This document shows positions 64-63,991 of a DNA stretch of 64,000 bases, piece by piece; position 1 is the stretch's first letter, and every line of letters begins with the position of its first letter. The notes beneath the pieces were generated by a model, which saw nothing but the letters and a program-made list of their open reading frames with translations, was not told the origin of the DNA and ran no database searches. Where the stretch lies: positions 24,268 to 88,267 of the forward strand of contig NZ_LRML01000018.1 in assembly GCF_001647285.1 (NCBI RefSeq), given 5' to 3'. The DNA comes from Rufibacter roseus (GTDB lineage: Bacteria; Bacteroidota; Bacteroidia; Cytophagales; Hymenobacteraceae). A program made the position numbers and the translations under genes.

Positions 64-101
64 CGTTTTCGGCCTTGTTTCCTGAAAACAGCTGGAAAAC
101 G
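64..101. repeat. Dispersed palindrome, copy R1
   Basis: Imperfect dyad beginning CGTTTTCGGCC and ending CTGGAAAACG around a TTTCCTGAAA centre. It belongs to the family described under R14 (55758). It lies outside any recognisable gene, at the left edge of the window. Confidence 0.6.
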
Positions 102-180
102 TGATAAGGTTCCAATTGGTTGTGCCTCTTTAGGTGAGGGGAAAATGTGAAAGATGAAGAGAGGTTTTGGCTAGGGTTGA

Positions 181-359
181 TGGCGCAAGTGTCCGCTTGT
201 GTGAGAACGCATTGCAAAAGAGTAGAGACTGCACCAGCTTTGTCCTCCGCCGTTGTAGTGTGTTCTCACCAACAACTAAAACTGCGGTTACCTAAACAAG
301 AGTAGCTTCAAAGTTTTAATTTCAGATCAGCGTGCGGACACAAGCAGACGCTTGCGCCA
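181..359. mobile_element. MITE-like element, copy A (179 bp)
   Basis: The ends are inverted repeats: TGGCGCAAGTGTCCGCTTGT on the left, and the complement of TGGCGCAAGCGTCTGCTTGT on the right. An internal block around 245-279 contains a GTTGT..ACAAC hairpin and is closely matched in copy B (56778-56925). There is no open reading frame and no transposase, so it would be non-autonomous. I see no clear target-site duplication. The element lies between palindromes R1 and R2. Confidence 0.65.
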
Positions 360-391
360 GCGGTAGTCTTAGAAAAAGAACTGGCTGTTCC

Positions 392-430
392 TCTTTTAGA
401 CGTCTTTTCAGAAAAACAGCCCTAAAACAG
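392..430. repeat. Dispersed palindrome, copy R2
   Basis: TCTTTTAGACG..AGCCCTAAAACAG around a TTTTCAGAAAA centre. Its right arm runs directly into the stem of the terminator at 428-464, downstream of the CocE-type hydrolase gene. Confidence 0.65.
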
Positions 431-464
431 AAAAGCCGCTCATCAATTATAAGCGGCTTTTCTG
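428..464 (-). terminator. Terminator of CocE-type hydrolase gene
   Basis: A 13-bp perfect stem, CAGAAAAGCCGCT / AGCGGCTTTTCTG, with an 11-base loop. It sits 16 bases beyond the hydrolase stop and ends in a T-run on the minus strand. Confidence 0.8.
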
Positions 465-479
465 TGGATGAATACTTAT

Positions 480-61796: not shown

Positions 61797-62273
61797 ATGG
61801 CACTAGATGAAGCGAAATTCTTGGAGGTAAAAAAAATCTTTACCGCCTACTTAGAAAATAAAGGTCTCCGGAAGACCCCGGAGCGGTATGCCATTCTGGA
61901 GGAGATTTATTCCCGGAACGGTCACTTTGATGTAGAGTCGCTTTACATCAGTATGAAGAACAAGAACTATCAGGTGAGCCGTGCTACCGTATATAATACT
62001 CTAGATTTGCTGGTAGAGAACGATCTGGTGAGTAAACACCAGTTCGGGCGTAATCTGGCGCAGTATGAGAAATCGTATGGCCGCCGCCAACATGACCACG
62101 TCATCTGTACCGAATGCCATAAAGTAGTGGAGTTCTGCGACCCTCGGGTACATAATATCCAAACCATGGTAGGGGAGCTGTTAAATTTTAATATTCTGCA
62201 CCACTCCTTAAATTTGTACGGCATCTGCGGCGACTGCCAGGCTAAGTTAAATTCACCTGTCCATGAAAATTGA
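61797..62273 (+). CDS. Fur-family transcriptional regulator
   Basis: A 158-residue Fur-type metal- or peroxide-responsive repressor. The winged helix is at residues 1-90, with recognition helix VSRATVYNTLDLLVEN. The dimer domain has structural zinc pairs Cys104/Cys107 (CTEC) and Cys144/Cys147 (CGDC), plus His-rich RRQHDHVICTECHK. Fur, Zur or PerR cannot be separated without alignment. A TAAGTTTG -7-like box at 61773-61780 lies 16 bases before the ATG. The end overlaps the STAS gene by 11 bases. Confidence 0.9.
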   Translation: MALDEAKFLEVKKIFTAYLENKGLRKTPERYAILEEIYSRNGHFDVESLYISMKNKNYQVSRATVYNTLDLLVENDLVSKHQFGRNLAQYEKSYGRRQHDHVICTECHKVVEFCDPRVHNIQTMVGELLNFNILHHSLNLYGICGDCQAKLNSPVHEN

Positions 62274-62610
62274 GCATACCCTAGAGGAGAACATTTTGAT
62301 CATCCGCCTGGAAGGCGACATGATAGGTGGGCCTGAAACGCAGCGTCTCATGGATTTGGCCAACAACACCATTGATGATTCCACACTTTTATCGGCGGTA
62401 GATTTATCTAATGTCCGGTTTATAAACAGTAGCGGAATAGGGGTACTGGTTTCGCTCTTAACCAAGTTCAGGAACCGAGGCGGTGAATTACTCCTGATCA
62501 ATCCGTCTGAACACATTCGTAAATTATTAATCATCACAAAACTGAACGCCATCTTCACCATAGCTGAAGATGATCAAAGCGCCATTCAGCTTCTTAAAGA
62601 ATCACTTTAA
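62263..62610 (+). CDS. STAS-domain anti-sigma factor antagonist
   Basis: A 115-residue single STAS domain like SpoIIAA/RsbV. FINSSGIGVLVSLLTKFRNRGGEL holds the phosphorylatable Ser (Ser56 or Ser57). In the family an unphosphorylated antagonist binds an anti-sigma kinase and frees a sigma factor. No such kinase or phosphatase is in the window. It overlaps the Fur gene by 11 bases and touches purA with no gap. Confidence 0.88.
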   Translation: MKIEHTLEENILIIRLEGDMIGGPETQRLMDLANNTIDDSTLLSAVDLSNVRFINSSGIGVLVSLLTKFRNRGGELLLINPSEHIRKLLIITKLNAIFTIAEDDQSAIQLLKESL

Positions 62611-63879
62611 ATGCCAGTTGACATTCTAGTAGGCCTCCAGTGGGGCGACGAGGGAAAAGGGAAAATCGTTGATGTACTCGCTCCTCAATATGATGTGGTA
62701 GCCCGTTTCCAGGGAGGCCCAAATGCCGGACACACCCTTGAGTTTGAAGGAACCAAGCACGTCTTGCACCAAATACCATCCGGTATCTTTCATGAGCACA
62801 TCACCAATATTATAGGCAACGGCGTAGTGCTGGACCCCATCGTTTTCCGGACCGAGGTTGAAAAACTAACTGCCCGTGGCGTAGATGCTACCCGTAACCT
62901 TTACATCTCCAAAAAAGCACAAATCATTCTTCCTTCCCACAAGAGCTTAGATAGAATCTCAGAAGAAGCGTTAGGAAGTTCAAAAATTGGCTCAACCCAA
63001 AAAGGAATTGGCCCAGCCTACCAAGATAAAATTGGCCGTAGCGGTTTAAGGGTAGGCGATATTTTGCTGCCAGACTTTAAAGAGCGTTACAAGACCATAG
63101 TAGCCAAGCACCAGAAGATTGCTTCCTTCTACCAGAAGTCGCTTGAAATTGAAGAGCTGGAAGAGCAATTCTTCAGCGCCGTAGATTTCCTGCGCACTTT
63201 TACTTTGGTTGACTCTGAATACATGATCAATCAGGCTATTAAAGACGGCAAAAAGATTTTGGCCGAAGGAGCCCAAGGGTCTTTATTAGATATTGACTTC
63301 GGAACCTATCCGTTTGTTACTTCTTCAAATACCTTAGTAGCTGGTGCCTGTACAGGTTTAGGAATTGCCCCTAGACATATAGGAGAAGTATACGGAATCT
63401 TTAAAGCATACTGCACACGCGTGGGTAGTGGGCCGTTCCCCACAGAACTGCATGATGAAGTAGGGGAGAGGATAAGAAAAGCAGGAAATGAATTTGGCTC
63501 CACCACTGGCCGACCACGCCGTTGCGGCTGGATAGACTTGCCGTCGCTTAAGTATGCCATCATGTTGAATGGAGTAACCCAACTAAACATGATGAAAGCT
63601 GACGTGCTAGATGAGTTTGAAGAAATTCAGGTCTGCACACACTATAAATTAGCTGACGGTACGCTTACAGATCAGTTGCCGCATGATTTAGATAAAGCTG
63701 ACATTACACCAGTATATAAAGCCATGAAAGGTTGGGGTGAGGAATTGAGAAACTATGAAGGTTATCAAAACTTGCCACAAGCGGTTTTAGATTATGTAGC
63801 GTTTTTAGAAAAAGAGCTGGAGGTAAGTGTAAACATCATCAGCGTAGGGCCAGATAGGAAAAGTACTTTAGTAAAGTAG
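62611..63879 (+). CDS. purA: Adenylosuccinate synthetase
   Basis: A 422-residue enzyme joining IMP and aspartate with GTP to make adenylosuccinate, the first step to AMP. The GTP loop is GDEGKGK (12-18, after LVGLQW). FQGGPNAGHTLEFEGTKHVLHQIPSGI is the family signature; GSTQKGIGPAYQDKIGRSG and TTGRPRRCGWIDL bind IMP and Asp. Usual length. It follows the STAS stop directly (TAAATG) and ends with the terminator at 63902-63933. Confidence 0.97.
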   Translation: MPVDILVGLQWGDEGKGKIVDVLAPQYDVVARFQGGPNAGHTLEFEGTKHVLHQIPSGIFHEHITNIIGNGVVLDPIVFRTEVEKLTARGVDATRNLYISKKAQIILPSHKSLDRISEEALGSSKIGSTQKGIGPAYQDKIGRSGLRVGDILLPDFKERYKTIVAKHQKIASFYQKSLEIEELEEQFFSAVDFLRTFTLVDSEYMINQAIKDGKKILAEGAQGSLLDIDFGTYPFVTSSNTLVAGACTGLGIAPRHIGEVYGIFKAYCTRVGSGPFPTELHDEVGERIRKAGNEFGSTTGRPRRCGWIDLPSLKYAIMLNGVTQLNMMKADVLDEFEEIQVCTHYKLADGTLTDQLPHDLDKADITPVYKAMKGWGEELRNYEGYQNLPQAVLDYVAFLEKELEVSVNIISVGPDRKSTLVK

Positions 63880-63901
63880 TTCTATAGAAACTCATAAAAA
63901 A

Positions 63902-63933
63902 AAGGGGAGGCAGGCGAAAGCTTGCCTCCCCTT
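63902..63933 (+). terminator. Terminator of fur-STAS-purA operon
   Basis: AAGGGGAGGCA / TGCCTCCCCTT stem closed by a GAAA-type loop, 23 bases after the purA stop. Confidence 0.85.
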
Positions 63934-63951
63934 CTTGCATATGGAGAGGGT

Positions 63952-63991
63952 GTGTTTTGGCGCCGATTTCCGGAAAAGAGGCTTAAAACGC
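63952..63991. repeat. Dispersed palindrome, copy R17
   Basis: GTGTTTTGGCGCC..GAGGCTTAAAACGC around GATTTCCGGAAAA, 19 bases beyond the purA terminator at the right edge of the window. Confidence 0.6.

What the first reader, a model, noticed from the sequence alone, without database searches (positions are those of the whole stretch)
64..63991. Eighteen dispersed copies of a roughly 38-bp palindrome across 64 kb
Copies at 64, 392, 11468, 13004, 15921, 18696, 20497, 20682, 40670, 47082, 48230, 49784, 50302, 54160, 55758, 56588, 61651 and 63952 fit CTGTTTTAGGCCTG, TTTTC-N-GAAAA, CAGGCCTAAAACAG with variable decay. The density is about one per 3.5 kb, with none between 20.7 and 40.6 kb, which includes the respiratory cluster. 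Similar extragenic palindromes elsewhere (REP/BIME) are spread by RAYT transposases or bound by nucleoid proteins. No RAYT is in this window, so the agent and function are open.
Basis: partly seen in the sequence, partly recalled or inferred. Interest (0 to 1): 0.7.

Follow-up and report, generated by a model that had tools for sequence, protein, structure and literature searches.

The report
Genus-wide palindromes punctuating gene boundaries
All 16 examined species of one bacterial genus (probably Rufibacter) carry about 660 to 2,300 copies of a 40-base palindrome that, where mapped, sits mostly between genes and at matching places in different species; it is likely a docking site for a still unknown DNA-binding protein that would mark where transcription units end, rather than a jumping element.

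Summary
In detail: all 18 reported copies are there, plus five more (two weak). The host genome holds about 1,400-1,600 copies (reversed-pattern control 0-3) and the 16 genomes of its genus 662-2,288 each; 46 genomes of five sister genera hold 0-7, near their controls (0-6). Y1/RAYT-type genes occur in all six genera of the family sampled, the palindrome in one. A one-contig genome without a detectable RAYT carries 1,469 copies. [quoted passage not shown] In the one region compared, copies sit at orthologous boundaries in nearly all species; four T/A tracts stay nearly invariant while other letters drift, giving species dialects. In the host sample 52 of 62 convergent gaps hold a copy, more than random placement gives. 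Mismatched arm pairs show no G.U bias along the transcript, so the constraint looks DNA-level. Perfect copies extend their palindrome into locus-specific flanks, suggesting arm-to-arm template copying. Best reading: a boundary (insulator or roadblock) site read by an unidentified DNA-binding protein; protein and role are inferred and untested.

The parts
63..102 (.). palindrome copy, 35.9 bits
391..430 (.). palindrome copy, 43.9 bits; its ACAG end is shared with the inverted repeat 427-465 beside the gene 480-2354
11468..11507 (.). palindrome copy, 38.9 bits
13004..13043 (.). palindrome copy, 43.6 bits
15918..15957 (.). copy, 23.7 bits, just beyond the 5' end of the priA ORF 13378-15912
18695..18734 (.). 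palindrome copy, 45.4 bits
20496..20535 (.). palindrome copy, 40.7 bits
20680..20719 (.). palindrome copy, 44.5 bits
40669..40708 (.). in-gene copy, 43.7 bits, inside ORF 39752-43444
47081..47120 (.). palindrome copy, 32.8 bits
48228..48267 (.). palindrome copy, 46.7 bits, overlapping inverted repeat 48259-48303
49784..49823 (.). palindrome copy, 45.5 bits, between the epimerase gene and lprI; a site at this boundary in 15 of 15 genomes examined (host included)
50302..50341 (.). palindrome copy, 46.6 bits, downstream of lprI
54160..54199 (.). palindrome copy, 50.3 bits, between convergent lpxB and clpX, beside hairpin 54204-54246; a site at this boundary in 14 of 15 genomes examined (host included)
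55758..55797 (.). palindrome copy, 52.1 bits, clpX/clpP gap
56588..56627 (.). palindrome copy, 47.2 bits, about 80 bases above clpP; a site at this boundary in 16 of 16 genomes (host included)
58615..58654 (.). weak match, 19.1 bits, conserved AT-rich block upstream of relA; probably a different element
61649..61688 (.). palindrome copy, 36.0 bits
63952..63991 (.). palindrome copy, 40.5 bits, downstream of purA

Best explanation
The 40-bp palindromes sit mainly between genes and close to stop codons, are kept at matching boundaries across 16 species in the region compared, and are likely bound as double-stranded DNA by an unidentified symmetric protein that would insulate neighbouring transcription units. 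Shown: four CTGTTTT-like boxes, two direct copies 11 bp apart in each inverted half, with nearly invariant T/A tracts; high density between genes; about one copy per convergent gap in the host; orthologous retention at the boundaries compared; species dialects; no G.U wobble bias.
For: Counts: 662-2,288 copies in each of 16 of 16 genus genomes, reversed controls 0-4; 46 genomes of five other genera of the family 0-7, controls 0-6. Placement in 864 kb of G000, per kb: convergent 3.35, tandem 1.97, divergent 0.85, coding or unassigned 0.04. Occupied convergent gaps (60-1,500 bp): 52 of 62 against 32.5 +/- 2.5 if copies fell at random by length; tandem 152 of 308 against 112 +/- 4.8. Of 257 gene ends with a copy, 71 also have a separate intrinsic terminator, and the copy lies beyond it in 49 of 71 (tandem 27 of 33, convergent 22 of 38). 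Orthology: at five boundaries 69 of 76 positional orthologues score at least 10 bits; tract columns match the genus consensus at 0.90, other arm columns at 0.64. Nine genome pairs: 48 shared sites, 6 one-sided; identity 0.89 in tracts, 0.80 in flanks, 0.67 in other arm columns. Dialects: 42 of 73 test sites score best under their own genome's matrix trained elsewhere, chance 9.1; half-sites outside full sites 1, inside 134. DNA not RNA: in tandem gaps, transcript orientation, G.U 201 against A.C 185, p = 0.45.
Against: No binding protein was identified, and no occupancy, expression or topology data exist. The arms covary at pairs 7-34, 8-33 and 11-30 and weakly at some others, which a pure dimer site does not require; template copying is offered but unproven. 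Information content, 39.6 bits, far exceeds what is needed to find about 1,500 sites in 5 Mb, as in a copied element. 31 of 288 matches in the sample were not assigned to an intergenic gap; three of these lie at the window's edges, the rest inside called genes. In convergent gaps the order terminator-copy is only 22 of 38. 20 of 76 convergent-to-other comparisons aside, divergent gaps also hold copies (20 of 74). Of the eight dialect genomes, G001's sites score slightly better under G000's matrix and G004 and G006 are near ties. Alignments anchor on T/A runs, so tract identity is somewhat inflated. Genes and terminators were called with my own simple scripts, orthology was examined in one 20-kb region only.
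Confidence: 0.5

Rival explanations
1. REP-like elements dispersed long ago by a TnpA_REP/RAYT (subclass 2.6 type) and now vertically inherited.
For: REP-like placement. Of 30 Y1 loci examined 27 are RAYT-like, most 176-192 aa; 16 of 27 have NHxH, 10 SHxH, and 25 of 27 a Y(I/V/L)HxN(P/S)-type motif, like the NH[LIV]H, WQ, YIH[QN]NP motifs given for Bacteroidetes subclass 2.6 in PMC6006769 (passages and sections 12, 13, 25), which is described there as flanked by atypical secondary structures.
Against: Y1 genes do not track the palindrome; not enriched at RAYT-like genes, 6 of 27 against 33 of 137; few intermediate decayed copies in G000; tract columns conserved over other columns; no GTAG or CGTC tag seen. 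G007 may have lost its RAYT only recently, since its dialect is close to G013's.
Confidence: 0.22
2. A self-recognition or DNA-uptake signature, like the DUS dialects of Neisseriaceae, kept by biased uptake rather than by a function at gene ends.
For: Thousands of copies and species dialects as in DUS (PMC3630211, passages); one copy in the 98 kb examined of the 235-kb Rufibacter tibetensis plasmid, against 3-7 per 10 kb in genus genomes; one G015 copy looks like the G012 dialect.
Against: Half-sites do not occur alone, 1 outside against 134 inside full sites; one-per-gap placement and convergent preference; copies rare in coding sequence.
Confidence: 0.1
3. RNA-level 3' elements: bidirectional terminators or mRNA-protecting stem-loops.
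For: Near gene 3' ends; of five copies folded, 54160-54199 folds far better than shuffles, z = -6.4; 15 of 257 gene ends have a terminator call overlapping the copy; perfect copies have extended stems.
Against: G.U no commoner than A.C in transcript orientation; copies mostly lie beyond a terminator where both exist, 49 of 71; one of the five, 47081-47120, folds no better than shuffles, z = +0.4; the most conserved columns are unvarying T/A, not covarying pairs.
Confidence: 0.13

Closest known systems
E. coli REP/BIME (palindromic units)
   Same: Short extragenic palindromes at gene 3' ends and between convergent genes; proposed topological roles (gyrase binding of REP seen only as a reference title; otherwise recalled).
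   Different: Here single palindromes with four T/A boxes, about one per convergent gap, at orthologous boundaries across a genus, with species dialects and no link found to a RAYT.
TnpA_REP subclass 2.6 and its atypical structures (PMC6006769; passages and three sections seen)
   Same: Bacteroidota; similar RAYT-like genes in this genus; untagged secondary structures.
   Different: The palindromes do not mark the RAYT-like genes and occur without them in G007; Y1 genes occur in sister genera without the palindromes. The paper's own subclass 2.6 structures were not seen, so a sequence comparison was not made.
GTAG- and CGTC-tagged REPs (PMC3733652; abstract and passages seen)
   Same: 20-40 bp, many copies, between convergent and unidirectional genes.
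   Different: No unpaired GTAG or CGTC tag.
DUS dialects of Neisseriaceae (PMC3630211; passages seen)
   Same: Thousands of copies and dialects.
   Different: Full symmetric 40-mer required, mostly between genes, about one per convergent gap.
REPIN populations (PMC8049555; passages seen)
   Same: Persisting, vertically inherited populations of short sequences; some REPINs also persist in RAYT-less E. coli.
   Different: Not inverted REP pairs with a diverse spacer; half-units not found alone.

Membership tests
REP elements (general) | short palindrome, high copy, extragenic | tested here: met
REP elements (tagged) | unpaired GTAG or CGTC tag at one foot | tested here: not met
   outside the foot no column of the 158 exact-spacing matches in 864 kb is fixed, and the foot bases pair (base counts read by eye)
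REP elements | between convergent and unidirectional genes, few divergent | tested here: met
   3.35, 1.97, 0.85 per kb
RAYT-mobilised REP/REPIN | RAYT gene flanked by the repeats | tested here: not met
   both sides within 300 bp in 6 of 27 RAYT-like genes (30 of 45 Y1 loci examined, 3 IS200-like left out), against 33 of 137 stand-alone genes of G000; the two sets are from different genomes
RAYT-mobilised REP/REPIN | repeat presence follows the transposase | tested here: not met
   35 of 41 family genomes have Y1 genes, only g1 has the repeat; G007 has the repeat without a detected Y1 gene
REPIN | two inverted units with a diverse spacer, singlets as remnants | tested here: not met
   one fixed 26-base spacing between GTTTT and AAAAC dominates; exact half-sites outside full copies 1 of 135
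Mobile element in general | site present in one relative and cleanly absent in another | tested here: inconclusive
   48 shared, 6 one-sided sites, the six not examined for clean empty sites; the one in-gene case followed (fecCD) shows no insertion
DNA uptake sequence | species dialects | tested here: met
   42 of 73 against 9.1, eight genomes
DNA uptake sequence | short unit found singly, also in genes | tested here: not met
DNA uptake sequence | promotes transformation | not testable with these tools
   needs bench work
Intrinsic terminator | G+C-rich hairpin followed by a U run | tested here: not met
   15 of 257 gene ends with a copy have a terminator call that overlaps it
Described RNA family | Rfam match at gathering score | tested here: not met
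   only a tRNA in the window
Sequence-specific protein-bound DNA site | a protein that binds it | not testable with these tools
   no candidate identified; none sought systematically

The most novel reading that the evidence does not exclude
A whole bacterial genus runs a chromosome punctuation system: about 1,500 symmetric four-box DNA sites, one at each transcription-unit boundary, read by a dedicated protein whose specificity drifts together with all of its sites, as a bacterial counterpart of roadblock or insulator factors.
Probability: 0.35. Interest if true: 0.88.

Novelty: new variant of a known kind. Interest (0 to 1): 0.72.

Why it matters
REP-like palindromes have been known for decades (recalled), and why genomes keep them is still debated. 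Here a clean natural experiment exists: copies held at orthologous boundaries, species dialects, one genome without a detectable Y1 transposase, and sister genera without the element. If a reader protein exists, it would be a bacterial insulator system with about 1,500 native sites, and its dialects would allow specificity-swap tests. If none exists, the conserved T/A tracts need another explanation.

Tried and rejected
Decaying mobile repeat with very different copy numbers: the strict-pattern spread (21 to 1,025 strand matches per genus genome) is largely a dialect effect; with the dialect-tolerant core all 16 genomes have 662-2,288. A second, shorter family (GTTTT-N15-AAAAC peak, 189 matches): the listed examples are outer-to-inner boxes of the same sites. 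RNA hairpin function was tested by G.U against A.C and not supported. Half-sites as the unit: rejected. In-gene copies as insertions: the fecCD matches in four genomes come with no insertion in the protein, so they are look-alikes or gains by substitution; other in-gene copies were not followed. Viral contigs: no exact match to a pattern with 32 specified bases, a strict test only. The first RAYT flank table was wrong because minus-strand loci were not turned; it was redone and one search is not used for positions. The genus name rests on one plasmid match (E = 0.5 by blastn, 38.4 bits by matrix) and is inferred. Not tried: enumerating genus-specific DNA-binding proteins. I found no paper on this repeat with the searches 'Pontibacter + repetitive extragenic palindromic', 'REP-associated tyrosine transposase + Bacteroidetes', 'extragenic palindrom + Bacteroidetes + intergenic', 'Rufibacter + palindrom' and 'Rufibacter + repeat + genome + Hymenobacteraceae' (at least 3 of 4 terms, 12 of 42 listed). 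Of the papers listed I opened only PMC3733652 and PMC6006769 from these searches, in part; the library holds open-licence papers only.
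Full report
Is it there? Yes. One arm alone is over-represented in the window (29 against 8.35 +/- 2.95). Read in detail, the unit is CTGTTTT-n4-CTGTTTT-n4-AAAACAG-n4-AAAACAG: two direct CTGTTTT boxes 11 bp apart, then the inverted pair. In the whole 864 kb it finds 288 matches of at least 10 bits, 263 of them at least 24 bits, and none in the reversed sequence at those cut-offs (7 at 4 bits, where the real sequence has 294).

How many, and where in the tree? The strict 26-base pattern gives 208 forward and 202 reverse matches in the host, 21 to 1,025 strand matches in the 16 genus genomes, and almost none outside (18 of 59 genomes have any match: the 16 of the genus, one family member with one on each strand, one order member with 1). 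A core that tolerates dialects gives 662-2,288 per genus genome with reversed controls of 0-4. In 60 genomes drawn from the family, the 14 of the genus have 662-2,288 and the 46 of five other genera 0-7, with controls 0-6. In 194 genomes drawn from the order only the host, the one genus member in that draw, stands out (1,398 at 2 mismatches); the other 193 have 0-4, controls 0-5. That plasmid has one copy in the 98 of 235 kb fetched, against 3-7 per 10 kb in genus genomes.

Placement. With a simple hexamer gene caller, density per kb in the 864-kb sample of G000 is 3.35 in convergent gaps, 1.97 in tandem, 0.85 in divergent and 0.04 in coding or unassigned sequence (64, 171, 22 and 31 of 288 copies). 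Median distance from the nearer stop codon is 25.5 bases (convergent) and from the upstream stop 48 (tandem), with 110 to the next start. Copies are spread more evenly than chance: 52 of 62 convergent gaps of 60-1,500 bp are occupied against 32.5 +/- 2.5 expected by length (largest of 2,000 simulations 41), and 152 of 308 tandem gaps against 112 +/- 4.8; divergent gaps, 20 of 74 against 18.0 +/- 1.6, do not differ. Of 257 gene ends with a copy, 171 have no terminator call, 15 one that overlaps the copy and 71 a separate one. In those 71 the copy lies beyond the terminator in 49 (tandem 27 of 33, convergent 22 of 38); in 18 of the 49 the two abut or overlap by up to 5 bases.

Orthology and constraint. 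In the clpX neighbourhood of the 16 genomes copies sit at the same boundaries: 16 of 16 above clpP, 14 of 15 between lpxB and clpX, 15 of 15 beside the epimerase gene, 13 of 15 between the FRG gene and the epimerase gene (the host has an extra gene there), 11 of 15 behind relA (host included; 69 of 76 at 10 bits or more). Over all 76, misses included, tract columns match the genus consensus at 0.90, the other arm columns at 0.64. In nine genome pairs 48 sites are shared and 6 one-sided; tract identity is 0.89, flank 0.80, other arm columns 0.67 (alignment anchoring on T/A runs inflates the tract figure somewhat). This is the pattern of a maintained site in fast-evolving spacer, not of uniform decay. 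Only this one region was compared.

Dialects. Matrices trained on other loci of the same genome score clpX-region copies best in 42 of 73 cases (chance 9.1), eight genomes tested; on average the own matrix is best in seven of eight (G001's sites score 39.2 under G000's matrix and 38.7 under its own; G004 and G006 are near ties). G012 uses CTCATTTC where others use CTGTTTT(C). Sites stay in place while their letters change together.

RNA or DNA? Arms covary beyond column composition most clearly at pairs 7-34, 8-33 and 11-30, more weakly at some others, and not at 12-29, 13-28 or 14-27. In tandem gaps, read along the transcript, G.U mismatches (201) are no commoner than A.C (185), p = 0.45, so RNA pairing does not appear to be what is selected. 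Of 237 intergenic copies of at least 24 bits, those with perfect or near-perfect arms (17-18 of 18 pairs, n = 27) extend their palindrome into locus-specific flanks: 48% by 4 bp or more, 26% by 8 or more; with 15-16 pairs (n = 40) 20% by 4 or more; with at most 14 (n = 170) about 2%. I read this as one arm being copied onto the other, flank included, by strand switching at a hairpin; that is an inference, and selection for long stems at some loci is an alternative.

Agent. The host has five RAYT-like genes, one more in two pieces, and one full-length Y1 transposase. Motifs of the RAYT-like genes of the genus resemble TnpA_REP subclass 2.6 of Bacteroidetes (PMC6006769; passages and sections 12, 13 and 25 read), though 10 of 27 have SHxH instead of NHxH. 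But 35 of 41 family genomes, from all six genera, have Y1 genes; G007 has none detectable and 1,469 copies; and 6 of 27 RAYT-like genes have copies on both sides within 300 bp against 33 of 137 stand-alone genes in G000 (30 of the 45 loci matched were examined, three of them IS200-like and left out; the comparison set is from one genome). G007's loss may be recent, because its dialect is close to that of G013. So a RAYT origin long ago is not excluded; RAYT maintenance is not supported.

Conclusion. Best reading: a DNA-level boundary site for an unidentified symmetric binding protein, about one per transcription-unit end, possibly a roadblock or topological insulator. The site, its placement, constraint and dialects are shown; the reader protein and the role are inferred.

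Noticed in passing
window 49784-50341; G002, G003, G004, G005, G008, G009, G010, G011, G014, G015: In the host the lprI gene lies between two copies where ten relatives have two adjacent copies, as if a gene had been inserted or lost between two sites.
   Followed up: partly
L179 (G013), lpxB/clpX gap: About 260 extra bases bounded by two copies where sister G007 has one copy; copies may be edges of insertions.
   Followed up: no
L223, L224 (Rufibacter tibetensis plasmid NZ_CP012644.1): One copy in 98 kb, far below chromosomal density; foreign or mobile DNA may lack the sites.
   Followed up: partly
G015:C1:455180-455215: A palindrome resembling the G012 dialect inside a genome with another dialect, perhaps marking transferred DNA.
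   Followed up: no
window 58593-58654: An AT-rich block about 42 bases upstream of relA, scored weakly by the matrix in 13 of 16 genus genomes, is probably a separate regulatory element.
   Followed up: no
G000:C7:28003-28525: A RAYT-like gene in two pieces in different frames.
   Followed up: no
L175 (G009) and L179 (G013) gaps: What looks by eye like another dispersed repeat (words such as CTGCCGCAAGC and ACTTGCGG) near the palindromes.
   Followed up: no
window 40669-40708 and 43744-43783: Two strong copies lie inside long open reading frames, 39752-43444 (not searched in Pfam) and 43441-47001 (no Pfam match); the first, by eye, between likely membrane helices.
   Followed up: partly
window 5332-6135: A 267-aa ORF with only RHS-repeat similarity, probably a fragment.
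   Followed up: no
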